Below are positions 50,639 through 61,104 of a stretch of 64,000 bases of DNA, in pieces. Under the pieces are notes generated by a model, which was not told where the DNA came from, did no database searches, and worked only from the letters and a program-made list of their open reading frames with translations. The position numbers and the translations under genes are program-made. This stretch comes from Geothrix terrae (GTDB lineage: Bacteria; Acidobacteriota; Holophagae; Holophagales; Holophagaceae), in the NCBI RefSeq assembly GCF_022808775.1, contig NZ_JAKZLA010000009.1, positions 103,805 to 167,804 of the forward strand, in the 5' to 3' direction. Every line of letters begins with the position of its first letter. The stretch's first letter is position 1.

Positions 50639-51646
50639 TCAGACCTTCTTCCCCTTCCGCCCGCGGCTGAGAACCTGATCCAACACCGCGTCCGCATGAT
50701 CGGTGTTGACGTGAATCCAGAGCGGCAGGTGATCGGACAGTTCGTAGGTGAGCCCCTTCGAGCTGGTGCCCTTGATGCCTTGGTAGAGGTCCTTCAGACC
50801 CTGGACCCCCGCCGGCCCCGCGAAGTCCAGGACCCCGCCCTTCCCTGTGAACGCTTCCTCGAACACCTTCGAGGGGAGATGCAGCAGCTGGTCGTACCGC
50901 TTGTCTTTGGCCAGGTTGCTGCCGGTGACGCCGCGGAGGGCTTTGGGGATCTGGAGCCCCGTGGAGGTGATGGCCTTGAAGGCGGGTCCCGTGACCGTGG
51001 GAATGTTGAAGTCGCCGAGGATCACCAGGTCCTTGTCCGTGACGTACTTCTCCTTGGCCTTGGCGCCCACCCACTTGGCCAGCTTGGTCAGCTCCCGGGC
51101 CCGCGCCTCCTCCCCGGGGTTCCCATCGCCTCCCCACCGGATGTGCGCCACCACGAGGATGAAGTCGAAACTCCCCGCCTGGAATCCGGCCAGATACGGG
51201 GGCCGCCACCAGTCGATGTCCGAGACGTAGTCCTGTTTTGCGTTCTTCGTGCGATCGGAGGCAACCACATGGCTGGCCAGCCCCGTGAACGTCACCGCGC
51301 GCGTGTCATGGATGAACGCCAACCGCTCGTGGTTCCCTCCCGGATCCGCGGAGTAATCAGAGTAGACCACGTCCCAGTAGGGGCCGAGGTACTCCAGCAC
51401 CGTTCGGAGTTGCTGGAGGTTGTCCCGAAGCTCGACCACGGAGACCAGATCGAACTGCCCGAGAATCTCGGCGATGTAGTGGAGGGAGGCCTCCGTGCGC
51501 GGCCCGGCCCCGAATTCGCGGATGTTCCAGGTCGCGAGGTTGATGGTTTCGTCCAGCTTGGAGGAGGGGATCCTGGCGTCGACGAGACGAGCCCGCAGGC
51601 GCTTCAAGCCGGCGGCAATGGCTGGAGAGATCGTTCCGTGGTGCAC
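50639..51646 (-). CDS. Endonuclease/exonuclease/phosphatase (DNase I-like) family protein
   Basis: 335 residues from a GTG with GGGAGG five bases upstream. The EEP fold motifs are in order: LATWNIREFG, the acid in LVSVVELRDN, WDVVYSDYS, VVAHIRWG, LVILGDFNIPT and SDHLPLWIHV. It probably hydrolyses phosphodiester bonds in DNA with a metal ion. No signal peptide, so intracellular. Neighbours are nuclease and broken antitoxin genes; specific role unknown. Confidence 0.85.
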   Translation of the reverse strand: MHHGTISPAIAAGLKRLRARLVDARIPSSKLDETINLATWNIREFGAGPRTEASLHYIAEILGQFDLVSVVELRDNLQQLRTVLEYLGPYWDVVYSDYSADPGGNHERLAFIHDTRAVTFTGLASHVVASDRTKNAKQDYVSDIDWWRPPYLAGFQAGSFDFILVVAHIRWGGDGNPGEEARARELTKLAKWVGAKAKEKYVTDKDLVILGDFNIPTVTGPAFKAITSTGLQIPKALRGVTGSNLAKDKRYDQLLHLPSKVFEEAFTGKGGVLDFAGPAGVQGLKDLYQGIKGTSSKGLTYELSDHLPLWIHVNTDHADAVLDQVLSRGRKGKKV

Positions 51647-51923: not shown

Positions 51924-52793
51924 CTAGTTCGCATTGAGCCCGAAAGGCTCCCGGGTGTGTAAGCGATCTTTCCAACTCGATTCCAACGCAATGACATCTT
52001 CGGCGGGCATATCCGGCGCAACCAGTTGGAGGATGGTGAATCGAAAGCCGATAGGGTCTCGGGCCTTTAGGTGCTTGTTCCCACCATGTCCTGAGGCCGC
52101 GTAGTTGGTCCATCGCCCCAATAGGTTCTGACGACCATAGGCTGATCCCACATAACCCTTGCCGTCGGCCTCGTCGAAGATCAGGTAGATTCCACGCCAC
52201 TGCCTTAGGGCTTCTCGCCACTTCCCCGGCAGAAGGCTCAGTTCTTCCCATGCGAGTGAAATCTGATTCCAAGCAGCCATCTCGGGGTTCAATAAGTCTT
52301 CCTCAAGAATGGCAGAGATGGGTATGTGGTTACGTTCGGACCATCGCCACCAAGAGCGATCGATGCCGGGCCAGTCCACGATCAGCTTCCCGGCCCATTC
52401 GGAATAGAACTTCATCCGTTCAAGTTCAAACCAGAGAATTGGATCGCGGCCCCCTTGGTAACCAGTCATGCCAAATTTCTTGAGTTCCTTGTGGCAGGGG
52501 AGTTCCCAATATTGTTTAAAAGTCAGTGGGAGTGAACCCGCATTTCGATAAAGCCCTACGAAAAAAGCTTTCCCAGCGCTGTGTCCCACAAAAGAAGCCA
52601 CATAGGGAGCTTTCAGCATGGCCGCTTGTACCTGCGGGGTCTGGGTCTGTTGGTATGCGTTGTAAAGGTCCGGGCGATCAGCAGCCATTAAGGGAAGGGC
52701 CCTATGCAGCCGTGGTTCCTTGGGCCGATGCCGCAAGACGAGCACCTGTTTGGGATCGATGTTCTGCTTGGCCAGGAGGTCATTGAATTCCAT
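51924..52793 (-). CDS. GIY-YIG nuclease
   Basis: 289 residues from the ATG at 52793 (AGAGGGA four bases upstream; frame open earlier). The GIY-YIG core is near the C-terminus: RGIYLIFDEADGKGYVGSAYGRQNLLGRW, then HLKARDPIGFRFTILQL and the ALESSWKDRLHTREPFGLN end with the metal-binding Glu. The N-terminal 190 residues (HRPKEPRLHRALPLMAADRPDLYNAYQQTQ ...) are similar to the front parts of other GIY-YIG proteins of defence loci, but I know no name. Likely cuts nucleic acid; perhaps restriction. Confidence 0.8.
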   Translation of the reverse strand: MEFNDLLAKQNIDPKQVLVLRHRPKEPRLHRALPLMAADRPDLYNAYQQTQTPQVQAAMLKAPYVASFVGHSAGKAFFVGLYRNAGSLPLTFKQYWELPCHKELKKFGMTGYQGGRDPILWFELERMKFYSEWAGKLIVDWPGIDRSWWRWSERNHIPISAILEEDLLNPEMAAWNQISLAWEELSLLPGKWREALRQWRGIYLIFDEADGKGYVGSAYGRQNLLGRWTNYAASGHGGNKHLKARDPIGFRFTILQLVAPDMPAEDVIALESSWKDRLHTREPFGLNAN

Positions 52794-52957
52794 GGATCCC
52801 TCTAAGGTGTCTTGGTGGTACAGCAAGCAGTCGGCCCTCATCATGCATCAAGAGCCAACTAATTCCCGTCGGCCCAAATTATCGCCGGCACCTCAAGGGT
52901 GAAGGCCAGTGGTCTAGGAAGATGTCTCTTCACCAGCCACTGGCCATGCATTCAAGT

Positions 52958-53461
52958 TCATCCGTCTGTCAGTGCATGGAAGCGTTCCATCAGGAGCGCG
53001 CGTTGTGAACGAATGGCCGATCGGAGTTGCATCCCTGCCTGCTCTGGAGTCCTGCCACCTTTGTGAGCATTGCATTCGCGGCAGCACGCGACCAGGTTTG
53101 CCCAGGTGCTCGGCCCGCCCTGGCACCGGGGGATGACATGGTCCACTGTGGTCGCCCGCCGCGTACACCCCAGGTACTGGCAGCGGTGACCATCACGCCG
53201 GAGGATGCTGGCATTGCCACGCCCGAACCCGAGCTTCGATTCAGTCACAGCCTTGGCCTTCGAGAAGACCACGGCGTGGAAGGGCTGTGAAGCCACGTCC
53301 TGCAGGCCGAGCTTCGACCAGGTCTTGAGGTCGAGCGCATGGGCCCGGCCTGTGGCCATGGCCTTCAGCGCCTTCCGGCGGGACATCTCAACCATGGGCA
53401 TGAAGTGACAGTCCAGGGCGAGGACGGTCTGGGTGTGGTGCTTCTTGGTGTGTCTTGACAT
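52958..53461 (-). CDS. HNH endonuclease directly after the tRNA array
   Basis: 167 residues from the ATG at 53461 with GAGGT four bases upstream; the open frame reaches into the tRNA-Leu gene, which is not translated. C-terminal HNH: CQYLGCTRRATTVDHVIPRCQGGPSTWANLVACCRECNAHKGGRTPEQAG with zinc cysteines and His of the DHVIPR strand. The N-terminal part (VLALDCHFMPMVEMSRRKALKAMATGRA) is typical of the IscB-like/ HNH group found in many genomes. Twelve bases separate it from the last tRNA, so it may be read with the array. Confidence 0.8.
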   Translation of the reverse strand: MSRHTKKHHTQTVLALDCHFMPMVEMSRRKALKAMATGRAHALDLKTWSKLGLQDVASQPFHAVVFSKAKAVTESKLGFGRGNASILRRDGHRCQYLGCTRRATTVDHVIPRCQGGPSTWANLVACCRECNAHKGGRTPEQAGMQLRSAIRSQRALLMERFHALTDG

Positions 53462-53473
53462 GGGGACCTCGGT

Positions 53474-53551
53474 TGGTGCGGGCGGTGGGAGTCGAACCCA
53501 CAGGAAATCCAGGTTTGAGCTGGAGGCGTATGCCAGTTCCGCCACGCCCGC
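53474..53551 (-). tRNA. tRNA-Leu(CAA)
   Basis: Acceptor GCGGGCG/CGCCCGC, anticodon loop CTCAAAC, T-arm GTGGG-TTCGACT-CCCAC, encoded CCA. The variable region is only six bases (TTTCCT), although bacterial leucine tRNAs normally carry a long arm. Last tRNA of the array. Confidence 0.9.
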
Positions 53552-53553
53552 GA

Positions 53554-53627
53554 TGGAGCCTTCTCCGGGAATCCAACCCGGCCTTCCGCCTTACGAGAGC
53601 GGCGTCACGGCACGTGACCAAGAAGGC
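53554..53627 (-). tRNA. tRNA-Thr(CGT)
   Basis: Acceptor GCCTTCT/AGAAGGC, anticodon loop CTCGTAA on a CCGCT/GGCGG stem, T-loop variant TTGGATT, encoded CCA. Two bases from tRNA-Leu(CAA). Confidence 0.88.
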
Positions 53628-53660
53628 AAACTTCACATCGGGATAACTGCTGGTGGAATT

Positions 53661-53736
53661 TGGAGCCCAAGGCCGGATTCGAACCGGCGGCCGCCCACTT
53701 ACCAAGCGGGTGCTCGACCAACCGAGCTCCTCGGGC
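53661..53736 (-). tRNA. tRNA-Thr(GGT)
   Basis: Acceptor GCCCGAG/CTTGGGC, anticodon loop TTGGTAA, T-arm GCCGG-TTCGAAT-CCGGC, encoded CCA. Confidence 0.92.
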
Positions 53737-53739
53737 GAA

Positions 53740-53816
53740 TGGAGCATCAGGAGGGACTCGAACCCCCTAAGACGGAATTTGCAGTCCCGCGCTTCGTCCG
53801 CTTCGGCTTCTGGTGC
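53740..53816 (-). tRNA. tRNA-Cys(GCA)
   Basis: Anticodon loop CTGCAAA on CGGGA/TTCCG, T-arm GGGGG-TTCGAGT-CCCTC, encoded CCA. Acceptor GCACCAG/CTGATGC has one C-A mismatch. Confidence 0.88.
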
Positions 53817-53820
53817 AGGG

Positions 53821-53894
53821 TGGAGCGGGTCAGGGGAGTTGAACCCCTCTCTTCGGCTTGGAAGGCCGAGGCCCGGCCGCTGGACCAGACCCGC
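53821..53894 (-). tRNA. tRNA-Gly(TCC)
   Basis: Acceptor GCGGGTC/GACCCGC, anticodon loop CTTCCAA on TCGGC/GCCGA, T-arm GGGG-TTCAACT-CCCC, encoded CCA. First of the five tRNAs downstream of the slipin gene. Confidence 0.93.
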
Positions 53895-53900
53895 GAGGGT

Positions 53901-53931
53901 GGGGGGTGCAATGGATGGACTCACACCCCCC
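53901..53931 (-). terminator. Stem-loop between slipin gene and tRNA-Gly
   Basis: GGGGGGTG / CACCCCCC, eight perfect pairs with a 15-base loop, 13 bases after the slipin stop. More likely a processing or stability element than a stop, since tRNAs follow in the same direction. Confidence 0.45.
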
Positions 53932-53943
53932 GGATAAAACGCC

Positions 53944-55035
53944 TCAATCCTTGTTCAGGCCTCCCAGGCTGCGAAGCAGGTCCGGCTGGCCCATCACGAG
54001 GGTGAGGTTGGGGATCGCGGACGCGATCTCCTTGAAGGCTTCCAGTTCCTTCAGGCGCAGGAGCGCAGGGTTGCGCTCGAGCATCTGAGCAGTGTTCGCC
54101 ATGGAACGGGTCGAGGCAACTTCCTCGCGACGCATGATGACCTGCGCCGCGGCCTTCTTCTCGGCCTCGATGACCTGGTTGAGGAGCAGCTTCATCTCGC
54201 CGGGGAGGACCAGGTCCTTCACGTCGAGCTTCAGCACCTCCGCACCCCAGGACGCTGCGCGTTCCCGCAGGGCTTCCGCCATGGGGGCCACGGCCTCTGA
54301 GCGGCGCTCCAGGAGCTGGTCCAGGCTCAGCTCGGCCACGAAGTGCCGGGCGGACATCTGGGCCTCGCTGTACAGCGCATCCCGCAGCGAAGCCACGGAC
54401 TGCACAGCCTTCACCGGGTCGGTGACCCGGAACTTCACGACGAGGTTCAGGCGGAGGGTGACCTTGTCACGGGTCATGAGCTCCTGGCCGAGGATCTGCA
54501 CTTCCTGCTCGCGCAGGTCCACCCGCATCACCTCAAGCTTGCGGTTGAGGGTGCTGTAGATCGCGCGGCCCTCGGAGAGGACCTCGCGAAGCACACCGTC
54601 GACGTGGACGAGGGCGCGCTCGAAGGGCAGAACCAGAACGGTCTGGACCTGGGCGGTGGGCACCAGGGCCCAGAAGCCTTCGGGGATCGAAGGGCGCAGG
54701 GGCTCGAGGCTCACCACGTCCAGGGTCACCTTGGACGCGAGCTGCCAGAGCAGGTAGCGGCCAGGCTGGAGGACGGCCTTGGGCACGCCGTCCGCCCGCA
54801 GGAGGCCCAGGTGGGTCTCAGGCACGAAGGCCTCCACGGCAGCGCCAGAAGGGGCCACGGCCATCAACTCCGGCGTGAACAGGGTCTGGAGGGTGTCGCG
54901 GTTGAAGAGACGCAGTTCCAGGCGGGACAGGCCCCGGAACACCCGGTGGCGGCCGGGTTCCAGCCAGCGGACAAGCTGACCGTTGCGGACCAGGAGACCA
55001 CGCTCCTGGTCAGAGATGACATAACGCTGATACAT
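53944..55035 (-). CDS. Slipin (SPFH/band-7) family protein of the RNA repair operon
   Basis: 363 residues. The SPFH domain is clear: VISDQERGLLVRNGQLVRWLEPGRHRVFRG at the start, later LREQEVQILGQELMTRDKVTLRLNLVVKFRVTDPVKAV, then a helical C-terminal part with the usual VIEAEKKAAAQVIMRREEVASTRSMANTAQML stomatin motif. No N-terminal membrane helix is present, so it may be peripheral or cytosolic, as noted for slipins in rtc operons. AAAGGA is nine bases before the ATG. Slipin genes beside rtcB are known in bacterial RNA repair operons; the molecular role there is unknown. tRNA genes lie on both sides. Confidence 0.9.
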   Translation of the reverse strand: MYQRYVISDQERGLLVRNGQLVRWLEPGRHRVFRGLSRLELRLFNRDTLQTLFTPELMAVAPSGAAVEAFVPETHLGLLRADGVPKAVLQPGRYLLWQLASKVTLDVVSLEPLRPSIPEGFWALVPTAQVQTVLVLPFERALVHVDGVLREVLSEGRAIYSTLNRKLEVMRVDLREQEVQILGQELMTRDKVTLRLNLVVKFRVTDPVKAVQSVASLRDALYSEAQMSARHFVAELSLDQLLERRSEAVAPMAEALRERAASWGAEVLKLDVKDLVLPGEMKLLLNQVIEAEKKAAAQVIMRREEVASTRSMANTAQMLERNPALLRLKELEAFKEIASAIPNLTLVMGQPDLLRSLGGLNKD

Positions 55036-55507
55036 CGTTGGATTCCTTTCTTGGTGAGACTTCAGCCGAGGCCCCGGGGGTGTCTCGACGGGGCCTCCGG
55101 CGGGATCTGGACCTGGGCGCGAAACGGCATGCGCCTGAAGATCCGGGGCCGGCCCCTGCCCACATGGGCAGGTGGAGACCGCTGGCCGGGCTGCCCCCTG
55201 CCCTCGGGACGAATCCCTCGGGCTGGGGCCTGGGCAGAAGTGGTGGGTGGTTCCGAGCGCTTCTTAGGCGCATGCAACCAGTGCACGGATTAACAGTCCG
55301 TTGGGGAGTCGAACCCCTGATCGTGGGAATGTGCGTCTTCCCCGTACGGGAGGGCTCCTCCTGGTTCGAATCGCGGGACACCACCGGCCGACCAGGAACC
55401 CATGAGGTTCCGTGGGCCGGGGATGCCGCACTTGCCAGGCCCCCCCTCCTGACCCACGCCCAGGTTGGAAGCCCAGGCGCGGGTGGTCTTCTTGCTCCAG
55501 GAAGGGA
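55036..55507 (-). ncRNA. Structured spacer between rtcB and slipin with tRNA-like parts
   Basis: 470 bases without a gene but full of stems on the transcribed strand: CCTGCCCA/TGGGCAGG (55155-55172), an Asn-type anticodon arm ACGGA-CTGTTAA-TCCGT (55286-55302) fused to a T-arm GGGG-TTCGACT-CCCC (55304-55318), and a two-step stem CCGGCC..GGAACC/GGTTCC..GGCCGG (55384-55420). No complete cloverleaf can be drawn. It could be a degenerate tRNA or a tRNA-mimicking RNA like those of Ro/rtc operons. Confidence 0.5.
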
Positions 55508-56674
55508 CTACCCCTTCACGCAGAGCACCTGCTTCAGTTCGAACCGGATGTCGACGAGGTCAGCCTGGTTGCGCATGACCTCATCGATGTCCTTGTAGCA
55601 GCCTGGAATTTCATCCAGCACACCAGCATCCTTCCGGCACTCGACCCCTTCGGTCTGACGGGCGAGGTCCTGCACGCTGAAGTGCTTCTTGGCGGCATTG
55701 CGGCTCATCTTTCGGCCGGCGCCGTGGGACGCCGATTCGAAGGATTCGGGGTTCCCCTTGCCCTGGACGATGAAGCTGCGGGCGCCCATGGAACCCGGGA
55801 TGATGCCCCATTCACCGCGTCCGGCCCGGATGGCTCCCTTGCGGGTCACCAGGACCTCCTCGCCGAAGTGGACTTCTTCCGACACGTAGTTGTGATGGCA
55901 GAGGATGGGAGGCTCGAAAGCCACTTCGGGGAAGTGGGCCTTCACGACATCCTTCACTTGGGCCAGCATGGCCTCGCGGTTGAGGAAAGCGTACCGCTGG
56001 GCCCAGAACAGATCCCGGCGGTAGGCCGCCATCTCCTTCGTGCCCTTGAGGAACACGGCCAGGTCACGGTCAGGCAGACCCTGGTTGTGGGCCAGCTTCT
56101 GCGCGACCTCGATGTGGATCTTGGCCAGCTCGTTGCCGATGTTCCGGCTGCCCGAGTGGAGCATGATCCACACGCCCTGGTCCTGGTCCAGGCAGACCTC
56201 GATGAAGTGGTTGCCGCCTCCCAGGGTTCCCGCCTGACGGCGGGCCTTTCCGAAGAGGTTCTGCACCCGTGCATCCAGGTCCTCGAACTCGTCCCAGAGG
56301 GGGTTCCGTTCGATGGCATCCAGGGGATCCCGGTACTGGTTGAATCCCACAGGAATGGCCTGCTCGATACTGAGCCGCAGGGCCTTGAGGCTTTCAGGAA
56401 GATCCGAGGCCCTGAGGTTGGTCTTCAGAGCGGCCATGCCGCAGCCAATGTCCACGCCGACCGCGGCAGGCGCGATGGCGTCCTTCATGGCGATGACGGA
56501 TCCCACCGTGGCGCCCTTCCCGAAATGGACGTCGGGCATGACGGCCACATGCTTGAACACCCACGGAAGGGCCGCGATGTTCTTGAGCTGGGTGAGAGCC
56601 TGGGATTCGACTTCGTGGACGGGGGTCCACATCTTGATGGGGGCGACAGCCCCCTGGAGGGTTGCGAGGGACAT
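55508..56674 (-). CDS. rtcB: RtcB RNA ligase
   Basis: 388 residues from the ATG at 56674 (AAAGGAGG five bases upstream; the frame opens earlier inside non-coding DNA). All RtcB landmarks are present: VGVDIGCGM with metal-binding Cys78, GGGNHFIE at 152-159, LHSGSRNIGN, CHHNYV, GSMGARSFIVQGKGN, and the guanylylated His317 in ASHGAGRKMSR. RtcB joins 2',3'-cyclic-phosphate or 3'-phosphate ends to 5'-OH ends using GTP and Mn2+, the ends left by anticodon nucleases. It sits within a tRNA array and before a slipin gene. No rtcA or rtcR gene is in the window. Confidence 0.97.
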   Translation of the reverse strand: MSLATLQGAVAPIKMWTPVHEVESQALTQLKNIAALPWVFKHVAVMPDVHFGKGATVGSVIAMKDAIAPAAVGVDIGCGMAALKTNLRASDLPESLKALRLSIEQAIPVGFNQYRDPLDAIERNPLWDEFEDLDARVQNLFGKARRQAGTLGGGNHFIEVCLDQDQGVWIMLHSGSRNIGNELAKIHIEVAQKLAHNQGLPDRDLAVFLKGTKEMAAYRRDLFWAQRYAFLNREAMLAQVKDVVKAHFPEVAFEPPILCHHNYVSEEVHFGEEVLVTRKGAIRAGRGEWGIIPGSMGARSFIVQGKGNPESFESASHGAGRKMSRNAAKKHFSVQDLARQTEGVECRKDAGVLDEIPGCYKDIDEVMRNQADLVDIRFELKQVLCVKG

Positions 56675-56763
56675 GGTCGCCTCCTTTCGTAACAGGGTTT
56701 TGGATTGAAGCCCACACATTGCGGGCCGGGTTGGCTCACCACGGAGAGGTCCCGGATGAGATT

Positions 56764-56840
56764 TGGTCGGCGTGGCCAGGATCGAACTAGCGACCTCCTG
56801 CTCCCGAAGCAGGCGCGCTCCCAGGCTGCGCTAAACGCCG
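56764..56840 (-). tRNA. tRNA-Pro(CGG)
   Basis: Acceptor CGGCGTT/CACGCCG, anticodon loop TTCGGGA on CCTGC/GCAGG, Pro-type D-arm GCGCAGCCTGGGAGCGC, encoded CCA. Nearest tRNA upstream of rtcB. Confidence 0.9.
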
Positions 56841-56843
56841 GAT

Positions 56844-56919
56844 TGGTACCGCAGGCCGTAGTCGAAACGGCGCGCTCCCGGGTAAGAACCGGGTGCTCTT
56901 CCACCTGAGCTACTGCGGT
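56844..56919 (-). tRNA. tRNA-Lys(CTT)
   Basis: Acceptor ACCGCAG/CTGCGGT, anticodon loop TTCTTAC on CCCGG/CCGGG, T-arm GCCGT-TTCGACT-ACGGC, encoded CCA. Confidence 0.93.
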
Positions 56920-56925
56920 GTGGAT

Positions 56926-57001
56926 TGGCGAACCGTGAGGGACTTGCACCCTCTTTCACCAGCTTGAAGGGCTGGCCGCTTACTCCGACGCGTCACGGTC
57001 C
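56926..57001 (-). tRNA. tRNA-Glu(TTC), C33 variant
   Basis: Acceptor GGACCGT/ACGGTTC, anticodon loop CCTTCAA on CCAGC/GCTGG: position 33 is C instead of U. T-loop TGCAAGT. Encoded CCA. Confidence 0.88.
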
Positions 57002-57002
57002 A

Positions 57003-57077
57003 TGGTGCCCTCGGCTGGTGTCGATCCAGCCGCCTCCCGCGCGTCGGGCGGGCGCTCTGCCGATGAGCTACGAGGGC
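57003..57077 (-). tRNA. tRNA-Val(GAC), C33 variant
   Basis: Acceptor GCCCTCG/CGAGGGC, anticodon loop CCGACGC on CCCGC/GCGGG, so C33 and G37. Encoded CCA; one base from tRNA-Glu. Confidence 0.88.
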
Positions 57078-57081
57078 GAAG

Positions 57082-57156
57082 TGGTACTCCCGGGGGATCT
57101 TGAAACCCCGACCTCCTGGGTGTGGGCTAGGCGCTCTGCCTCTGAGCTACAGGAGT
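57082..57156 (-). tRNA. tRNA-Val(CAC), C33 variant
   Basis: Acceptor ACTCCTG/CGGGAGT, anticodon loop CCCACAC on CCTAG/CCAGG (one A-C mismatch), C33. T-arm GGGGT-TTCAAGA-TCCCC. Encoded CCA. Confidence 0.85.
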
Positions 57157-57157
57157 G

Positions 57158-57236
57158 TGGTCAGCCCGGCCCGATTTGAACGGGCGCTCTCCGGTCCCCC
57201 AGACCGGCGCTTTCGCCTGGCTAAGCTACAGGCTGA
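57158..57236 (-). tRNA. tRNA-Pro(GGG)
   Basis: Acceptor TCAGCCT/GGGCTGA, anticodon loop CTGGGGG on CCGGT/ACCGG, T-arm GCCCG-TTCAAAT-CGGGC, encoded CCA. Confidence 0.9.
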
Positions 57237-57238
57237 TG

Positions 57239-57314
57239 TGGAGCCGCCTCCCGGTCATGATCCGGGTGCCCCCCGCTTACAAGGCGGGCGCTCTGCCAGA
57301 TGAGCTAAGGCGGC
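57239..57314 (-). tRNA. tRNA-Thr(TGT)
   Basis: Acceptor GCCGCCT/AGGCGGC, anticodon loop CTTGTAA on CCCGC/GCGGG, T-loop variant ATCATGA, encoded CCA. Confidence 0.9.
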
Positions 57315-57316
57315 AC

Positions 57317-57393
57317 TGGTGTCCTCGGGCGGATTCCAACCGCCAACCTGCCCCTTAGGAGGGGGCTGCCTCATGCAGTTCGGCTTCGAGGAC
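57317..57393 (-). tRNA. tRNA-Arg(CCT)
   Basis: Acceptor GTCCTCG/CGAGGAC, anticodon loop CTCCTAA on GCCCC/GGGGC, T-loop variant TTGGAAT, encoded CCA. Confidence 0.9.
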
Positions 57394-57394
57394 C

Positions 57395-57468
57395 TGGTAC
57401 CCCCACCGGTTTCGACACCGGGACCTCGGCCTTCGGAGAGCCGCGTTCTTCACCTGAACTATGAGGGT
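57395..57468 (-). tRNA. tRNA-Arg(CCG)
   Basis: Acceptor ACCCTCA/TGGGGGT, anticodon loop CTCCGAA on CGGCT/GGCCG, encoded CCA. One base from its neighbour on each side. Confidence 0.88.
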
Positions 57469-57469
57469 G

Positions 57470-57548
57470 TGGTGGGCTGGGTCAGAGTCGAACTGACATC
57501 CTCCGGATTTTCAGTCCGGCGCTGCATCCACGTTTCAGCTTCCAGCCC
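57470..57548 (-). tRNA. tRNA-Phe(GAA)
   Basis: Acceptor GGGCTGG/CCAGCCC, anticodon loop CTGAAAA on CCGGA/TCCGG, T-arm GTCAG-TTCGACT-CTGAC, encoded CCA. D-arm slightly long. Confidence 0.9.
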
Positions 57549-57552
57549 GTGG

Positions 57553-57626
57553 TGGTGTGACGTAACGGAATCGAACCGATGCATCCGCGTTCACAGCGCG
57601 GTGCTCTGCCACTGAGCTAACGTCAC
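57553..57626 (-). tRNA. tRNA-His(GTG)
   Basis: Acceptor GTGACGT/ACGTCAC, anticodon loop CTGTGAA on CCGCG/CGCGG, T-arm ATCGG-TTCGATT-CCGTT, encoded CCA. Confidence 0.92.
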
Positions 57627-57633
57627 CGTCTGG

Positions 57634-57651
57634 GGGCCCATCACTGGGCCC
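57634..57651 (-). other. Small hairpin between tRNA genes
   Basis: GGGCCCA-TCAC-TGGGCCC, seven perfect pairs in the 28-base spacer between tRNA-His and tRNA-Asn; possibly a processing signal. Confidence 0.45.
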
Positions 57652-57654
57652 GAT

Positions 57655-57729
57655 TGGCGAACTGGACGGGATTCGAACCCGCATCGGGCGCCTTAACAGG
57701 GCGCTGCTCAACCATTGAGCTTCCAGTCC
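57655..57729 (-). tRNA. tRNA-Asn(GTT)
   Basis: Acceptor GGACTGG/CCAGTTC, anticodon loop CTGTTAA on GCGCC/GGCGC, T-arm GCGGG-TTCGAAT-CCCGT, encoded CCA. Confidence 0.93.
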
Positions 57730-57778
57730 ACTGGTTTGGATCGGTCAGGGTTGATGCTTCAAACCGATCTTGCGTGAT

Positions 57779-57855
57779 TGGTGCGCCCGGAGGGACTCGA
57801 ACCCCCATGAACCCAGCTTCGTAAACTGGTGCTAATCCCGTTCAGCTACGGGCGC
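57779..57855 (-). tRNA. tRNA-Arg(ACG)
   Basis: Acceptor GCGCCCG/CGGGCGC, anticodon loop TTACGAA on CCAGT/GCTGG, T-arm GGGGG-TTCGAGT-CCCTC, encoded CCA. The 49-base spacer before tRNA-Asn can fold (GATCGGT/ACCGATC). Confidence 0.93.
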
Positions 57856-57866
57856 GTGAATGTTGG

Positions 57867-57935
57867 TGGTTCCCCGTACAGGAGTCGAACCTGCCGTTCG
57901 GGTTTAGAAGACCCTGGCCCTCCCTGGGACGGGGC
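57867..57935 (-). tRNA. tRNA-Arg(TCT) with shortened D-arm
   Basis: Acceptor GCCCCGT/ACGGGGA (first pair mismatched), anticodon loop CTTCTAA on GGGT/ACCC, T-arm GCAGG-TTCGACT-CCTGT, encoded CCA. Only about eleven bases are left for the D-arm, so 66 bases before CCA. Confidence 0.75.
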
Positions 57936-57939
57936 AGAA

Positions 57940-58033
57940 TGGCGGCGAGTGGGAGACTTGAACTCCCAGACCCTCGGGGCAGAGGGCCAGTCCGCTTTCG
58001 GGGCGGGTGCGATACCGTTCCGCTCAACTCGCC
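57940..58033 (-). tRNA. tRNA-Ser(CGA), C33 variant
   Basis: Acceptor GGCGAGT/ACTCGCC, anticodon loop CCCGAAA (C33), long class II variable arm (CCCTC..GAGGG), T-arm GGGAG-TTCAAGT-CTCCC, encoded CCA. Confidence 0.9.
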
Positions 58034-58038
58034 TTGAA

Positions 58039-58114
58039 TGGTGGATCCACCCGGAGTTCAACCGGGTTCTCGCGGATGCCATCCGCGTGTGTCACGCCGC
58101 AACACCTTGGACCC
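58039..58114 (-). tRNA. tRNA-Ala(GGC)
   Basis: Acceptor GGGTCCA/TGGATCC, anticodon loop ATGGCAT on CGCGG/CCGCG, T-arm CCCGG-TTGAACT-CCGGG, encoded CCA. Lacks the G3-U70 pair in the usual orientation: it has G3-T70, which matches the Ala identity pair. Confidence 0.88.
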
Positions 58115-58119
58115 ATGAA

Positions 58120-58197
58120 TGGTTGCCGCCCTGGGGATCGAACCCAGACCCTCTCGCTTATCGGGCGAGCGCTCTACCAGATTGGAGCTAGGCGGCA
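58120..58197 (-). tRNA. tRNA-Ile(GAT), C33 variant
   Basis: Acceptor TGCCGCC/GGCGGCA, anticodon loop CCGATAA on CTCGC/GCGAG (C33), T-arm CTGGG-TTCGATC-CCCAG, encoded CCA. Confidence 0.9.
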
Positions 58198-58204
58198 CTG
58201 AGGA

Positions 58205-58276
58205 TGGCGACCCACCGGGGAATCGAACCCCGCCCGGCTGGATTTGGAGTCCGGCCTGCGCCCTGGCGCGCGAGTC
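58205..58276 (-). tRNA. tRNA-Trp(CCA) with compact D-arm
   Basis: Acceptor GACTCGC/GTGGGTC, anticodon loop CTCCAAA on CCGGA/TCCAG, T-arm CGGGG-TTCGATT-CCCCG, encoded CCA. D-arm reduced to GCGC-CAGG-GCGC. Confidence 0.8.
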
Positions 58277-58278
58277 AG

Positions 58279-58372
58279 TGGAGGTGAGTCCCGGATTCGA
58301 ACCGGGACGCCCTCAGGACAGAGGGCGAGACCGTCTTCCAGACGGATGCGATGCCATTCCGCTCAACTCACC
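58279..58372 (-). tRNA. tRNA-Ser(GGA)
   Basis: Acceptor GGTGAGT/ACTCACC, anticodon loop CTGGAAG, long variable arm (GCCCTC..GAGGGC), T-arm CCCGG-TTCGAAT-CCGGG, encoded CCA. Confidence 0.92.
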
Positions 58373-58467
58373 TAGGTCTTGACGTGACCCGATCGGGGAC
58401 GGCTGGTCGTGTCCCTCACGATCCCCCCAGAGCCCCACACTGAAGGGAACCGGACGGGCCGTGCGAT

Positions 58468-58546
58468 TGGTACCCCAGGTCCGAGTCGAACGGACAGAAA
58501 CACCACTTTCTGAGAGTGGCCGCGATACCTGATAGCGTACTGGGGC
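58468..58546 (-). tRNA. tRNA-Leu(CAG)
   Basis: Acceptor GCCCCAG/CTGGGGT, anticodon loop CTCAGAA on CCACT/AGTGG, T-arm GTCCG-TTCGACT-CGGAC, encoded CCA. Variable region only seven bases (TGTTTCT), no class II arm. Confidence 0.88.
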
Positions 58547-58588
58547 ATGGTTCCTGGGCTGGATGCGTTGACCTGGCCCTGGGGAGAT

Positions 58589-58662
58589 TGGTTGCGGGTG
58601 AGGGAGTTGAACCCTACTTCCACCTTTGGGTTATGAGCCCAAGGGCCACCACTGGACCCGCA
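58589..58662 (-). tRNA. tRNA-Met(CAT)
   Basis: Acceptor TGCGGGT/ACCCGCA, anticodon loop CTCATAA on TTGGG/CCCAA, T-arm TAGGG-TTCAACT-CCCTC, encoded CCA. Paired first base and no GGG/CCC initiator stem, so elongator; a lysidine-type Ile tRNA cannot be excluded. Confidence 0.85.
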
Positions 58663-58668
58663 TTGGAT

Positions 58669-58744
58669 TGGTGCCTCCAGCGAGCCTCGAACTCGCTACC
58701 CACCGGTTAAAGGCCGGTTGCTCGTCCACATGAGCTTTGGAGGC
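58669..58744 (-). tRNA. tRNA-Lys(TTT), C33 variant
   Basis: Acceptor GCCTCCA/TGGAGGC, anticodon loop CCTTTAA on ACCGG/CCGGT (C33), T-arm AGCGAG-TTCGAGG-CTCGCT, encoded CCA. Lys(UUU) is the target of PrrC-type nucleases. Confidence 0.9.
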
Positions 58745-58752
58745 GCTTGGAT

Positions 58753-58826
58753 TGGAGAGGCTGACGGGATTTGAACCCGTGTCTGGGCGATGGCGGCGCC
58801 CGATCCTGCCGCTAGACGACAGCCTC
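58753..58826 (-). tRNA. tRNA-Gly(GCC), C33 variant
   Basis: Acceptor GAGGCTG/CAGCCTC, anticodon loop CCGCCAT on GGGCG/CGCCC (C33), T-arm ACGGG-TTCAAAT-CCCGT, encoded CCA. Confidence 0.9.
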
Positions 58827-58828
58827 AT

Positions 58829-58903
58829 TGGTCTGGGTGACAGGATTCGAACCTGTGTAGGCCTGCTCCCAAGGCAGGTGGCCAACCGCTGGCCCACGCC
58901 CAG
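58829..58903 (-). tRNA. tRNA-Pro(TGG)
   Basis: Acceptor CTGGGCG/CACCCAG, anticodon loop CTTGGGA on CCTGC/GCAGG, T-arm ACAGG-TTCGAAT-CCTGT, encoded CCA. Confidence 0.92.
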
Positions 58904-58905
58904 AA

Positions 58906-58990
58906 TGGTGCCGCCCCAGGGAATCGAACCCTGTTGCATCTCTGCGCCGGGTTTACGGTCCGGTGCCCCGCCCAGTGAGGCGCGAGCGGC
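58906..58990 (-). tRNA. tRNA-Tyr(GTA), C33 variant
   Basis: Acceptor GCCGCTC/GGGCGGC, anticodon loop CCGTAAA (C33), class II variable arm GCAGAGATGC, T-arm CAGGG-TTCGATT-CCCTG, encoded CCA. Confidence 0.9.
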
Positions 58991-58994
58991 ATGA

Positions 58995-59071
58995 TGGTAC
59001 GAGTGGAGGGATTCGAACCCTCATGACCACGGCTCTCAACCGTTGGTGTATGCCGTTTCCGCCACACTCGC
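58995..59071 (-). tRNA. tRNA-Leu(GAG)
   Basis: Acceptor GCGAGTG/CACTCGT, anticodon loop TTGAGAG on ACGG/CCGT, T-arm GAGGG-TTCGAAT-CCCTC, encoded CCA. Short variable region (about six bases), again no class II arm. Confidence 0.88.
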
Positions 59072-59079
59072 ATTGGACT

Positions 59080-59154
59080 TGGCAGGAGCAGCGGGATTCG
59101 AACCCGCGGTTGCCTGGCTGAGAACCAGGTGCCTTACCGTTTGGCCATGCTCCC
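59080..59154 (-). tRNA. tRNA-Glu(CTC)
   Basis: Acceptor GGGAGCA/TGCTCCT, anticodon loop TTCTCAG on CCTGG/CCAGG, T-arm GCGGG-TTCGAAT-CCCGC, encoded CCA. Confidence 0.92.
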
Positions 59155-59159
59155 TAGAC

Positions 59160-59235
59160 TGGTGGATCCGCCGGGGATCGAACCCGGCCCTCCTGCTTGC
59201 AAAGCAGGCATGCCACGCAACAACACTTCGGACCC
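59160..59235 (-). tRNA. tRNA-Ala(TGC)
   Basis: Acceptor GGGTCCG/CGGATCC with the G3-T70 Ala pair, anticodon loop TTTGCAA on CCTGC/GCAGG, T-arm GCCGGG-TTCGATC-CCCGGC, encoded CCA. Confidence 0.93.
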
Positions 59236-59240
59236 GAATT

Positions 59241-59319
59241 TGGCGGAGCGTACGGGATTCGAACCCGTGATGTGTGCATAGACAGTGCACCGAGGACGGC
59301 CAGGCTCCTCCAACGCTCC
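59241..59319 (-). tRNA. tRNA-Asp(GTC)
   Basis: Acceptor GGAGCGT/ACGCTCC, anticodon loop CTGTCTA on GTGCA/TGCAC, so position 37 is a pyrimidine, which is unusual. T-arm ACGGG-TTCGAAT-CCCGT, encoded CCA. Confidence 0.88.
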
Positions 59320-59325
59320 CGAGAA

Positions 59326-59348
59326 CCCTGTCGGTCATGCCGACAGGG
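59326..59348 (-). terminator. Strong hairpin inside the tRNA array
   Basis: CCCTGTCGG-TCATG-CCGACAGGG, nine perfect pairs, six bases upstream of tRNA-Asp at the end of a 216-base spacer. It could be an attenuator separating the three promoter-proximal tRNAs from the rest, or an RNase site. Confidence 0.5.
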
Positions 59349-59535
59349 GTACTGCGGGCAGACGAACGTCCTCACTTGCCGGTGATGCGCCCAGGTATGC
59401 CTGAAGCGGTGATCTGCCGGGTCAGAAGGCTCTCGCCTGCCCTTGATTCCACCTTTCCGATCATCCTCAAACGACCAGAAATAGCAGTTATCCAAAATAT
59501 GAAGTTTTCAATGAACAAGAATTGATGAAATGCAA

Positions 59536-59628
59536 TGGCGGTGGGGTTAGGATCGAACTCACATGGAGATATAACTTCCCCAACCCGGATAGCAACCGGG
59601 GCCGATACCGATTTCGGTTGACCTCACC
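59536..59628 (-). tRNA. tRNA-Ser(GCT)
   Basis: Acceptor GGTGAGG/CCCCACC (one A-C mismatch), anticodon loop TTGCTAT on CCCGG/CCGGG, long variable arm, T-loop TTCGATC, encoded CCA. T-stem is weak. Confidence 0.85.
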
Positions 59629-59638
59629 GTGGGTGGAT

Positions 59639-59712
59639 TGGCTGGGGGACCTGGAATCGAACCAGGGTCTCGGGAGCCAAAGGCCCGCGTCCTGCCGCTG
59701 AACGATCCCCCA
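59639..59712 (-). tRNA. tRNA-Gln(TTG)
   Basis: Acceptor TGGGGGA/TCCCCCA, anticodon loop CTTTGGC on CGGGC/TCCCG (closing mismatch), T-arm CCTGG-TTCGATT-CCAGG, encoded CCA. Confidence 0.9.
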
Positions 59713-59723
59713 TCAGTGGATGG

Positions 59724-59799
59724 TGGTAGGGGCGAGAGGACTCGAACCTCTGATTGCCTGGATCAGAGCCAGGTGCCGTAGCCGCTGGGCCACGCCCCT
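59724..59799 (-). tRNA. tRNA-Gln(CTG), first tRNA of the array
   Basis: Acceptor AGGGGCG/CGCCCCT, anticodon loop CTCTGAT on CCTGG/CCAGG, T-arm AGAGG-TTCGAGT-CCTCT, encoded CCA. Confidence 0.92.
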
Positions 59800-59917
59800 A
59801 TGGGCCGTTCGCTTCAACCATGTTCCGGTATGCCTGATGCTGCGGACCCATGCCCCTGGGTTCTTCAGGTCTTCCGGTGGCGCCAGTTCTGGGGTGTGAA
59901 CCCGGCCTGGAAACGCC

Positions 59918-60100
59918 TTACACGGTCGGAATCAAGTTCCCTTGACTCTTTAGGTGGCGATAGCCCCTTCGGGACTTCGGTTCCTGGGAACCTGACCACT
60001 CCGAGCACCGGGTATCAAATCCCAGCGCCGTGAGCATCGCCACGCGACGCGCGGGTGCGCTCGCTGTGCCATGCAGGCTGAGGTGGGATTTGAGGAACAC
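59918..60100 (-). CDS. Leader ORF of the tRNA-rtcB array, 60 residues
   Basis: A GTG at 60100 has the perfect site AAAGGAG seven bases upstream and opens MFLKSHLSLHGTASAPARRVAMLTALGFDTRC, a basic peptide without a known domain. It is the first open frame after the presumed promoter and 118 bases before the first tRNA. The coding DNA also forms hairpins (GGTTCC-CA-GGAACC, TCAAG-GGAA-CTTGA), so it may be a regulatory leader where translation controls folding of the downstream RNA. Whether the peptide has a function of its own cannot be told. Confidence 0.5.
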   Translation of the reverse strand: MFLKSHLSLHGTASAPARRVAMLTALGFDTRCSEWSGSQEPKSRRGYRHLKSQGNLIPTV

Positions 60101-60144
60101 GGTGAATCTCCTTTGAGGGCCGGTTGACAACCAGGCAGATTCAG

Positions 60145-60174
60145 AATGTAGCCGATCGAATATCGTTCAGTCAA
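60145..60174 (-). promoter_or_regulatory. Sigma70-like promoter of the tRNA-rtcB array
   Basis: On the minus strand TTGACT (60174-60169) and TACATT (60150-60145) are 18 bases apart, in an AT-rich patch. A GGTTG-A-CAACC palindrome at 60122-60132 just downstream is a possible operator. Known rtc operons use sigma54 with RtcR; that is not seen here. Confidence 0.5.
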
Positions 60175-60342
60175 TATTTTTTGGATAATTTTTTTCTAAC
60201 TTAGTTTCAAGCCGACCTTCCTGCTGGCCACTCGGGTTCTAGCTATCAACGTTGGCTATGGACCCTAGGCTCTACGGGCAAGGCTGCACGCCCCACAGGG
60301 TACTCTTGGCATTGTCAGAGTCACGAACAGTGCAATGGGGAC

Positions 60343-60846
60343 CTATCGTTTTCGAGCCTCAAGCAGGTGGCTCTGGAGTTCAAGGGAGAGCTTCCGAGCG
60401 GCGAGCCGACTCTCCATGCCGATGCCGAATTCACAGATCCATTCCATCACCTCGCGGAACGCAACGACATCTCCTTCAAGGGCCTTCATGACCATGGCCC
60501 GCACCATGGCTTCCAAGTTGGTGCATGCCCGGCTCCGGGTTGCTGCGGTAGGCGCTGTGGCACTGAACAACACCTTGCTAAGGATGGATTCAACGAAATG
60601 TCTTTCTGCTTTCCTGCCGTAGGGGTTCCCAGATACTCCTTTCCTGAACTGCGTTGACCTGGGCGGCTGCTTGAATCCGATGTCATAAGTTGTGGTCAGT
60701 TCGTCTGCTTCGCTCGAGTTGGAAGGGGCCCCTTGGGGTCTCCTTCCCAGCGGATTTCCAGAAACCCCTTTCTGGAACTGAGTGTTCTTGGGAGGCCTCC
60801 CGAAGCCGACCTCGTAGGACTCGGATGGATCATCTGCGTCGGTCAT
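60343..60846 (-). CDS. Tandem DUF5681 protein
   Basis: 167 residues from the ATG at 60846 (GAGGG four bases upstream). The DUF5681 signature occurs twice: YEVGFGRPPKNTQFQKGVSGNPLGR and YDIGFKQPPRSTQFRKGVSGNPYGR, about 45 residues apart, followed by a helical part (LEAMVRAMVMKALEGDVVAFREVMEWI). In the cassette at 34816 the same signature occurs once, before the terminase. Here no terminase or methylase gene is adjacent, so it is an isolated phage-type gene. Probably DNA-binding. Confidence 0.75.
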   Translation of the reverse strand: MTDADDPSESYEVGFGRPPKNTQFQKGVSGNPLGRRPQGAPSNSSEADELTTTYDIGFKQPPRSTQFRKGVSGNPYGRKAERHFVESILSKVLFSATAPTAATRSRACTNLEAMVRAMVMKALEGDVVAFREVMEWICEFGIGMESRLAARKLSLELQSHLLEARKR

Positions 60847-61104
60847 TTCACCCTCCGATCCATGTCGTCGCTCCAACCGAACCAAAATGGAAGTGGATAA
60901 GTGCTGATCAATTCGATCACCGGGGGCCCCTTCTACCTTGCGGATGCCGGGTAGGGCTCGAAGGCGACAGCCAGGCTCTATCCCCGGGAAGGATCTGTGA
61001 TTCGATCCGCCCCGTGGTTCGGAATCAAATTAAAGCTCCAGGCTGGGCGGCAGCGCCTGGAGGTAGCTCCTTGATGCCGGCGCTGGATTCCTTGATCAGT
61101 GCAG

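What the first reader, a model, noticed from the sequence alone, without database searches (positions are those of the whole stretch)
53474..60174. A 37-tRNA array wrapped around rtcB and a slipin: a candidate tRNA repair-and-replace system
Seen: 32 tRNA genes, rtcB, a structured spacer, slipin and five more tRNA genes, all on one strand with spacers often of 1-10 bases, preceded by a promoter-like site and a leader ORF. Known: RtcB reseals the ends made by anticodon nucleases, rtc operons with slipins exist, and tRNA arrays occur on integrative elements. Inference: the two merge here into an inducible unit that both repairs cut tRNAs and supplies new ones when a toxin or a phage-triggered nuclease destroys the host pool. 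A complete set together with the ligase is, to my knowledge, not described as a system.
Basis: partly seen in the sequence, partly recalled or inferred. Interest (0 to 1): 0.93.

Follow-up and report, generated by a model that had tools for sequence, protein, structure and literature searches.

The report
Spare tRNA set with repair ligase
A bacterium of the Geothrix group carries, besides its ordinary tRNA genes, a second set of 37 tRNA genes covering all 20 amino acids, wrapped around the gene for the RNA-repair enzyme RtcB; it is likely an emergency kit that would replace and mend tRNAs when a toxin or a virus-triggered enzyme cuts them.

Summary
There are 37 tRNA genes on one strand (32 before rtcB, 5 after the slipin gene), with 37 different anticodons and all 20 amino acids. 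The genome has 45 other distinct tRNA sequences, so the array is a redundant second set.

The unit is a discrete cassette: homology with a sister genome runs from promoter and leader ORF to a terminal HNH gene and stops at both ends. Embedding recurs: of 35 Acidobacteriota genomes with this RtcB (396 searched), 12, in two families, have at least 7 tRNA genes within about 10 kb of rtcB; recA contexts in 20 of the 35 gave 0.

New here: 8 of 37 array tRNAs have C instead of the near-universal U33; host 0 of 45.

The idea is partly known: in Anabaena a silent tRNA array, rtcB, a slipin and an HNH gene share one stress regulon, but scattered (PMC10272220). I found no paper on their physical merger. 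Likely function: stress-induced tRNA replacement plus repair; induction, cleavage resistance and mobility are inferred. Phage-like genes in the window keep a counter-defence reading open. New variant of a known kind.

The parts
60145..60174 (-). promoter-like site TTGACT-18-TACATT, preceded by an A-rich stretch
   Evidence: 9 of 12 matches; 1 found, 0.8 expected in shuffles; region conserved in G028 (L068) and only loosely in L069
59918..60100 (-). leader ORF, GTG start, 60 aa ending NLIPTV, with Shine-Dalgarno-like AAAGGAG
   Evidence: the motif CTTGATTCCNACCGTGTAAGGCG around its stop is also in L061/L068 and L069
56764..59799 (-). tRNA block 1: 32 tRNA genes, Gln-CTG to Pro-CGG
   Evidence: C33 in 8 of them, checked on the Rfam model for 5
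55508..56719 (-). rtcB, RNA ligase (403 aa from 56719; the more likely start is ATG 56674 behind AGGAGG)
   Evidence: PF01139 E 1.5e-123; aligned to PDB RtcB chains; the only PF01139 match in the genome
55036..55507 (-). structured spacer between rtcB and slipin; tRNA-like domain 55241-55381 with a T-arm-like and two anticodon-loop-like hairpins
   Evidence: confident matches to a model of the domain only in the window and L061 among 28 sources
53944..55035 (-). slipin, SPFH/Band_7 protein
   Evidence: PF01145 E 7.5e-28; 96% identical in G028
53474..53894 (-). tRNA block 2: Gly-TCC, Cys-GCA, Thr-GGT, Thr-CGT, Leu-CAA
52958..53461 (-). HNH endonuclease gene closing the cassette
   Evidence: PF14279/PF01844 (scanned as 52958-53545); cassette homology with G028 runs to 52975; related HNH genes adjoin tRNA arrays in 4 of 7 plasmid regions opened, of 73 records matched

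Best explanation
The unit is a cassette of 37 tRNA genes with rtcB, a slipin gene and an HNH gene, all on one strand behind a promoter-like site and a leader ORF, and it is likely a repair-and-replace kit that would be switched on when translation fails, so that RtcB would reseal cut tRNAs while the array would supply a second tRNA set. Shown: the parts, the single orientation, redundancy with the host set, a leader conserved in relatives, a cassette with sharp ends, recurrence of rtcB inside arrays, and anticodon loops that differ from the host's (C33 in 8 of 37). From named families: RtcB joins 2',3'-cyclic-phosphate and 5'-OH ends such as ribotoxins leave. Inferred: one transcript from the promoter-like site; induction by tRNA damage or stalled ribosomes, perhaps sensed at the leader ORF; C33 and other loop changes making the spare tRNAs poor nuclease substrates; the slipin acting as a membrane partner of RNA repair; HNH-assisted spread of the cassette.
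For: Near-complete set without duplicates: 37 anticodons, 20 amino acids; by simple wobble rules, counting the array Met for AUG, it would read 98.6% of 10,736 sense codons in 18 window ORFs, missing only TTA, TCA, CTA, ATA, GTA. tRNAs under constraint: 177 of 185 anticodon-stem pairs (37 tRNAs) and 224 of 231 acceptor pairs (33 tRNAs with automatic cuts) form, although mean identity to the best host isoacceptor is only 68%. Recurrence: 12 of 35 rtcB-bearing Acidobacteriota genomes in the survey (3 of 4 in family f1, 9 of 14 in f22, 0 of 17 in the others); recA control 0 of 20 contexts. Repair companions in relatives: Ro60/TROVE in L069, L098, L266, L270, L272, L277; YrlA Y RNA in L098 and L272; RlaP in L143. 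Redundancy also elsewhere: G160, G264, G122 have 74, 68, 66 tRNA matches in all against 30, 23 and 23 ARAGORN tRNAs at the rtcB locus. Anticodon loops: C33 8 of 37 versus 0 of 45 host tRNAs, Fisher p 0.0011; C33 shared with L069 in Val-GAC, Val-CAC, Gly-GCC at about 71% tRNA identity. In print: Anabaena TrcR regulon (PMC10272220); phage tRNAs with altered anticodon loops against tRNA nucleases (PMC10264068, passages read).
Against: No expression, induction or protection data. The genome has no Ro60, RtcR or archease match, so the usual rtc regulator is absent, and no TrcR-like TGTAGTAT site lies at the promoter. The slipin is not a constant partner. The 9 f22 cases are one family and need not be independent; 5 of 14 f22 rtcB loci have no array (three with no tRNA, two with one), and G200, in the window's own genus, has rtcB without an array. 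Four HNH-marked plasmid arrays have no rtcB match in the 16 kb opened. C33 is frequent only in the f1 arrays, L149 and L270; it is 0 of 16 in the Tolypothrix array and 0 of 27 in Mycolicibacterium, and tRNAs lying scattered in the fetched loci also show 2 non-U33 of 55 against 19 of 230 clustered ones, so drift or lineage habit is possible. The window-G028 leader ORF has 9 substitutions in amino-acid-changing codons and 2 synonymous ones. rtcB and slipin could have promoters of their own. Phage-like genes in the window (a terminase at 35222-36886) fit the counter-defence rival.
Confidence: 0.56

Rival explanations
1. Counter-defence cargo: the array and RtcB serve a mobile element or phage-derived island, keeping its own translation going when the host's anticodon nucleases destroy tRNAs during its invasion; the bacterium benefits only by accident.
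For: 10 to 18 tRNA genes near rtcB in 3 of 42 rtcB-bearing viral contigs; jumbo phages combine tRNAs with RtcB and TROVE (PMC7824862, passages); mycobacterial arrays on plasmids and phages are called putative antidefence (PMC12803027, passages). In the window a phage-type terminase large subunit (35222-36886, PF17289 E 2.9e-16) with a DUF5681 gene beside it, a serine recombinase (30699-31997) and restriction genes lie 15-30 kb from the cassette, and another DUF5681 gene (60343-60885) adjoins its promoter side.
Against: No capsid, tail or conjugation family among the 35 window proteins scanned with Pfam (about 46 ORFs listed, so not all). In G028 the same cassette has unrelated flanks. In f22, 6 of 9 array loci share a Pro-GGG tRNA gene on the other strand ahead of the array, which fits resident loci rather than fresh elements.
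Confidence: 0.24
2. Selfish or neutral tRNA cassette: the HNH endonuclease spreads the array by homing, and the tRNAs, rtcB and slipin are passengers with little effect, or merely boost translation by tRNA dosage.
For: Sharp ends at the promoter side and the HNH stop with unrelated flanks in G028; relics in G020 (299 bp, 93%) and G013 (HNH fragment); HNH-type endonucleases are the most widespread array companion in mycobacteria (PMC5966550, passages); rtcB absent from 35 of 36 same-genus genomes in the first sample.
Against: tRNA stems are kept while sequences diverge; rtcB, slipin and leader are kept in a sister genome, and rtcB recurs in divergent arrays. An HNH relative of about 50% identity is in 35 of 36 same-genus genomes, and 28 such loci (about 1.5 kb each side) hold no tRNA, so HNH alone does not imply homing.
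Confidence: 0.13
3. Chance neighbours: rtcB and slipin happened to land in a tRNA array and are transcribed separately.
For: rtcB and slipin have ribosome-binding-site-like sequences of their own (read), and the 472-nt spacer could hold a promoter.
Against: No promoter-like site other than 60174-60145 in 53300-60400; rtcB in arrays 12 of 35 versus recA 0 of 20.
Confidence: 0.05

Closest known systems
Anabaena sp. PCC 7120 trn operon / L-array and TrcR regulon (PMC10272220, PMC9938897; passages and one section read)
   Same: Silent redundant tRNA array with an adjacent HNH gene (all8564); rtcB (all3526) and a slipin (alr0740) respond together with it.
   Different: There the array is on a megaplasmid while rtcB and slipin lie on the chromosome, joined by the TrcR repressor; here they sit inside the array. 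No TrcR-like site was seen here. A Tolypothrix plasmid array with a related HNH shows no C33.
rsr-yrlBA-rtcBA RNA repair operon (PMC7790460, passages read)
   Same: RtcB; relatives of the cassette carry Ro60 and, in two loci, a YrlA-type Y RNA close to rtcB.
   Different: The window genome has no Ro60, RtcR or archease match; the passages read mention no tRNA array.
tRNA array units of mycobacteria, their plasmids and phages (PMC5966550, PMC12803027; passages read)
   Same: Dense tRNA array, redundant with the host set, HNH companion, patchy distribution.
   Different: The word ligase does not occur in either text; no RtcB match in the 16 kb around the Mycolicibacterium array opened.
Phage tRNAs that evade tRNA-cutting defences (PMC10264068, passages read)
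   Same: Anticodon loops differ from the host's; a tRNA ligase is the other known answer to tRNA cutting.
   Different: Here a near-complete set on a bacterial contig, and the change is at U33, which a search of that paper's text did not find.

Membership tests
tRNA array unit | many tRNA genes at high density | tested here: met
   37 tRNA genes in 6.3 kb
tRNA array unit | redundant with the host's tRNA set | tested here: met
   36 of 37 anticodons also among 45 distinct host tRNA sequences
tRNA array unit | HNH endonuclease companion | tested here: met
   52958-53461
tRNA array unit | carried by a mobile element | tested here: inconclusive
   cassette ends and relics suggest movement; a terminase and a serine recombinase lie 15-25 kb away, none directly beside it
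Anabaena-type TrcR tRNA regulon | silent tRNA array with rtcB, slipin and HNH | tested here: inconclusive
   all four components present, in one cassette; silence under normal growth not testable here
Anabaena-type TrcR tRNA regulon | TrcR operator overlapping the -10 box | tested here: not met
   no TGTAGTAT within one mismatch near 60145; nearest of 7 chance-level matches at 47804; a TrcR homologue was not searched for
Anabaena-type TrcR tRNA regulon | induction by translation inhibitors | not testable with these tools
   needs expression data
rsr-yrlBA-rtcBA / RtcR-controlled repair operon | RtcB ligase with catalytic motifs | tested here: met
   PF01139; alignment to PDB chains covers the DIGCG, GGGNHFIEV, HSGSR, HN and SHGAGRKMSR stretches (that these are catalytic is recalled)
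rsr-yrlBA-rtcBA / RtcR-controlled repair operon | Ro60 (Rsr) protein | tested here: not met
   no TROVE match in G000 or G028; present in L069, L098 and four f22 array loci
rsr-yrlBA-rtcBA / RtcR-controlled repair operon | RtcR activator | tested here: not met
   no PF06956 match in the genome
rsr-yrlBA-rtcBA / RtcR-controlled repair operon | RtcA cyclase | not tested
   PF01137 was not searched
phage-type nuclease-evading tRNAs | anticodon loops altered against host tRNAs | tested here: met
   C33 in 8 of 37 versus 0 of 45, plus changes at 32, 37 and 38
phage-type nuclease-evading tRNAs | insensitivity to a tRNA nuclease | not testable with these tools
   needs a cleavage assay

The most novel reading that the evidence does not exclude
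A transferable translation rescue system of Acidobacteriota: one inducible transcript would deliver a near-complete set of cleavage-resistant tRNAs marked by C33 anticodon loops, the ligase RtcB to mend what is cut, and a tRNA-mimic RNA between rtcB and slipin whose anticodon-loop-like hairpins are exchanged between species (CUGUUAA to CUACGCA, CUAAGAA to CUUGUAA) and would act as bait or sensor for anticodon nucleases, with a leader ORF that reads out stalled translation.
Probability: 0.18. Interest if true: 0.93.

Novelty: new variant of a known kind. Interest (0 to 1): 0.72.

Why it matters
tRNA cutting is a common weapon of bacterial toxins and of phage-defence systems. If this reading is right, bacteria keep a transferable back-up translation kit that both repairs and replaces tRNAs, which would explain why large tRNA arrays persist beside full host sets and would tie together three lines studied apart: tRNA arrays, RtcB/Ro60 RNA repair, and nuclease-evading anticodon loops. 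C33 would be a directly testable mark of cleavage resistance.

Tried and rejected
Ideas dropped: (1) the array as the host's only tRNAs, rejected by 45 other distinct tRNA sequences. (2) The ARAGORN tmRNA at 57130-57562: spurious, spans several tRNAs. (3) The RF02553 YrlA hit at 57099-57213 (27.4 bits, gathering 69): it lies across two adjoining tRNAs. (4) The spacer as a known RNA family: two irrelevant matches up to E 5; a model of its tRNA-like domain found no third copy in 28 sources (other matches E 0.43 or worse); the local similarity to L069 9434-9741 was marginal (score 30, best of 100 shuffles 29). (5) The leader motif in viral contigs: 14 matches by pattern, none with a tRNA gene in the locus. 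(6) Covariation of the spacer's tRNA-like domain rests on two sequences; 58 of 500 shuffles do as well, so it is supportive only. (7) Association test: the 20 genomes of the recA control were chosen from the 35 rtcB-bearing ones and include all 12 with arrays, so the Fisher value printed is biased; the plain figures are 12 of 35 versus 0 of 20. (8) A host tRNA nuclease as the fixed partner: a PrrC-like AAA_13 protein is in the genome but absent from G028 and G160, which have arrays.

I lowered the main reading from 0.60 to 0.56 and raised the counter-defence rival from 0.20 to 0.24 for that reason.

The permuted-tRNA readings in L069 (about 7790-7870) and L098 (about 9755-9870) are mine by eye, no tool.

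Papers: my searches for rtcB with tRNA array, cluster, island, slipin, HNH, Ro60 or RNA-repair terms and for Acidobacteriota tRNA arrays listed no paper whose title or abstract start describes rtcB inside a tRNA array; one search listed 25 of 320 papers and 10 of 144, and I read passages or sections of nine papers only. The library lacks most subscription papers, and two likely sources were not held.
Full report
WHAT IS THERE. On the minus strand, in order of the inferred transcript: a promoter-like site 60174-60145; a 60-aa leader ORF 60100-59918; 32 tRNA genes 59799-56764; rtcB 56719-55508 (more likely start 56674); a 472-nt spacer; a slipin gene 55035-53944; five tRNA genes 53894-53474; an HNH gene 53461-52958. 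ARAGORN finds 31 of the tRNAs; the other six were placed from Rfam hits (Cys, Glu-TTC above the gathering score; Met, Tyr, Ser-GCT weak) or by eye (Arg-TCT). The 37 anticodons are all different and cover 20 amino acids. CCA is encoded in 33 by the automatic cuts and, by my reading, in the other four as well.

REDUNDANCY. The genome (3.43 Mb, 14 contigs, 97.7% complete) has 71 tRNA matches over the Rfam threshold. From fetched loci I get 45 distinct tRNA sequences outside the array. All array anticodons but Leu-GAG also occur there. The array's tRNAs are on average 68% identical to the best host isoacceptor (36 compared), 71% to the array of L069 (30) and 96% to that of L061 (26), so they are not recent copies of host genes. 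By simple wobble rules, counting the array Met for AUG, the array would read 98.6% of the sense codons of 18 window ORFs; TTA, TCA, CTA, ATA and GTA are not covered. The array Met has the three G-C pairs of an initiator anticodon stem (my reading), so internal AUG reading is uncertain.

THE CASSETTE. Contig lengths identify G200 with Geothrix fuzhouensis SG12, and G200 is listed as the same genus as the window, so the window genus is Geothrix in the genome collection's sense; by the same reasoning G028 is record JACPYP010000028.1 and G160 is JACPUT010000006.1. Between window and G028 homology covers 52975-60271 in pieces of 89-98% identity, except about 58550-58742 (no homologue in G028) and an insertion of about 2.5 kb in G028; the flanks do not match. 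Of 36 same-genus genomes in the first sample only G028 has rtcB; G200, in the phylum sample, has rtcB with one tRNA in 19.9 kb. G020 keeps a 299-bp relic of the slipin end and tRNA-Gly, G013 an HNH fragment with a stop. An HNH relative (about 50% identical) is in 35 of 36 same-genus genomes; 28 such loci, about 1.5 kb each side, had no tRNA gene.

RECURRENCE. I searched 396 Acidobacteriota genomes with the window RtcB: 35 matched at E 1e-80 or better. Their contexts are the window, G028, G160 (L069), G038 and G040 and 30 newly fetched stretches. 12 of 35 have at least 7 ARAGORN tRNAs within about 10 kb (some stretches are cut by contig ends; in G184 the seven include a flanking Pro-GGG): 3 of 4 in family f1, 9 of 14 in f22, 0 of 17 elsewhere. 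One f22 contig matches a record named Pyrinomonadaceae (G391 and L100). recA contexts from 20 of the 35 genomes, all 12 array genomes among them, gave 0 with 7 or more (at most 2). Of the 80 best rtcB loci in named genomes (409 candidates), 4 have 7 or more tRNAs: L068 and L069 (the G028 and G160 loci again), L098 and the gammaproteobacterial L143, where slipin, a PcfJ-like gene, rtcB, a GOLLD RNA, six tRNAs, HNH and RlaP follow one another. Of 42 viral contigs with rtcB, 3 loci have 10 or more tRNAs. Ro60/TROVE genes lie in or near arrays of L069, L098, L266, L270, L272, L277; YrlA is over threshold in L098 and L272 (L277 was not scanned for RNA families). Conversely, HNH-marked plasmid arrays need no rtcB: 4 of 7 opened HNH regions hold 16-33 tRNAs (L207, L209, L212, L216), and none of the four has an rtcB match; the Pseudarthrobacter plasmid has rtcB elsewhere.

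LEADERS. The window leader ORF is kept in G028 (87%) and loosely in L069 (42% over 43 residues, E 0.064), with CTTGATTCCNACCGTGTAAGGCG around the stop in all three. Substitutions between window and G028 are mostly amino-acid changing (9 against 2), so the conserved unit may be the end of the peptide or the RNA. In f22 a different leader ORF of about 54-60 aa precedes the array in 8 of 10 loci tested (L098, L266, L267, L271, L272, L274, L276, L277; three of these gave the queries). A leader ORF ahead of the array is thus found in both families. I infer, untested, that ribosome progress on the leader tunes transcription of the array.

ANTICODON LOOPS. Position 33 is C in 8 of 37 array tRNAs (Glu-TTC, Val-GAC, Val-CAC, Ser-CGA, Ile-GAT, Lys-TTT, Gly-GCC, Tyr-GTA) and in 0 of 45 host tRNAs. 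The Rfam alignments put the five checked ones (Glu-TTC, both Val, Lys-TTT, Gly-GCC) in the U33 column. Non-U33 counts elsewhere: L061 6 of 26, L069 5 of 30, L098 2 of 28, L143 0 of 7, L149 3 of 11, L175 2 of 18 (one an unassigned call), L185 1 of 10; f22 survey loci 8 of 126, of which L270 5 of 23; L207 1 of 32, L209 0 of 16, L212 1 of 33, L216 0 of 27; pooled over loci other than the window, 19 of 230 clustered and 2 of 55 scattered tRNAs. That U33 is nearly universal is recalled knowledge. Drift is a fair alternative, but stems are preserved and three C33 are shared with L069 at about 71% identity.

THE SPACER. The window and G028 spacers are 93% identical. The alignment has 150 predicted pairs, 4 with changes on both sides and none broken. 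A hairpin with the 7-nt loop CUGUUAA in the window reads CUACGCA in G028 with two compensating stem pairs, and a second goes from CUAAGAA to CUUGUAA: both keep the C32-U33...A38 frame of an anticodon loop while the middle changes. A T-arm-like hairpin is identical in both. With two sequences the statistics are weak.

SETTING. The window is rich in defence and mobile genes: a type I restriction system 21250-26535, a serine recombinase 30699-31997, a type II methyltransferase 33483-34823, a DUF5681 gene and a phage-type terminase 34816-36886, a type IV-like enzyme 40207-41283, and a UzuA-type GIY-YIG protein 51924-52844 next to the HNH gene; a second DUF5681 gene, 60343-60885, adjoins the promoter side. 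Elsewhere the genome has a PrrC-like AAA_13 protein.

MECHANISM. Most likely, damage to tRNAs or blocked translation raises transcription of the cassette; RtcB reseals tRNAs cut with 2',3'-cyclic-phosphate ends; the array replaces those lost, with loops that would be cut less. Co-regulation of the same four parts in Anabaena, where the array is induced by translation-targeting antibiotics, is the strongest outside support (PMC10272220). Anticodon-loop changes in phage tRNAs as nuclease evasion are proposed in PMC10264068, and tRNA fragments as the signal for rtc operons in PMC7790460; the regulator of that operon is missing here.

NOVELTY. A new variant of a known kind: tRNA array units and RtcB repair operons are both known, and a regulon joins them in Anabaena; their merger in one cassette, its recurrence with Ro60 and Y RNA, the C33 loops and the leaders were not found in the searches listed under Tried and rejected.

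Noticed in passing
window 51924-52844: GIY-YIG protein matching PADLOC UzuA (E 1.8e-76) directly downstream of the cassette's HNH gene.
   Followed up: no
window 30699-36886 and 60343-60885: Serine recombinase, DUF2924, methyltransferase, DUF5681 and a phage-type terminase large subunit in a row; a second DUF5681 gene sits at the cassette's promoter side.
   Followed up: partly
window 21250-26535: Type I restriction system (R, M, S subunits by PADLOC), followed by a SIR2_2-domain protein 26538-30353.
   Followed up: no
window 50639-51646 and L069 16448-17449: Endonuclease/exonuclease/phosphatase-family gene downstream of the array in both genomes (79% DNA identity), though the cassettes themselves differ.
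   Followed up: partly
L061 5377-7938 (G028) and window 20271-20456: G028 has an insertion of about 2.5 kb inside its tRNA block with two ORFs lacking Pfam matches; its end matches 186 bp of the window at 76%, far from the array.
   Followed up: no
L313 1438-3708 (own genome, contig C7): PrrC-like AAA_13 ATPase; PADLOC best model PDC-S06 (E 6.7e-268), PrrC model E 6.5e-13; found in 1 of 24 related genomes searched (G200). A possible resident tRNA nuclease, not shown.
   Followed up: partly
L143 6522-14846: Gammaproteobacterial MAG: tRNA, slipin, PcfJ-like gene, rtcB, GOLLD RNA (154 bits, gathering 150), tRNAs, HNH and RlaP in a row.
   Followed up: partly
L098 9498-9628 and about 9755-9870: YrlA Y RNA over threshold just before rtcB, and behind it what looks by eye like a circularly permuted tRNA-Leu.
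   Followed up: partly
L266-L277: Small f22 arrays keep mostly Leu-TAG, Asp, Asn, His, Lys-TTT, Gln and Arg-ACG, recalling known targets of tRNA-cutting toxins (targets recalled, no call; tRNA lists); shared ancestry could explain it.
   Followed up: no
L149 (viral contig, 45 kb): Eleven tRNA genes and rtcB (61% identical) with three C33 anticodon loops.
   Followed up: no
window 61731-63947: FGE-sulfatase-domain protein with repeated segments, near the contig's end.
   Followed up: no
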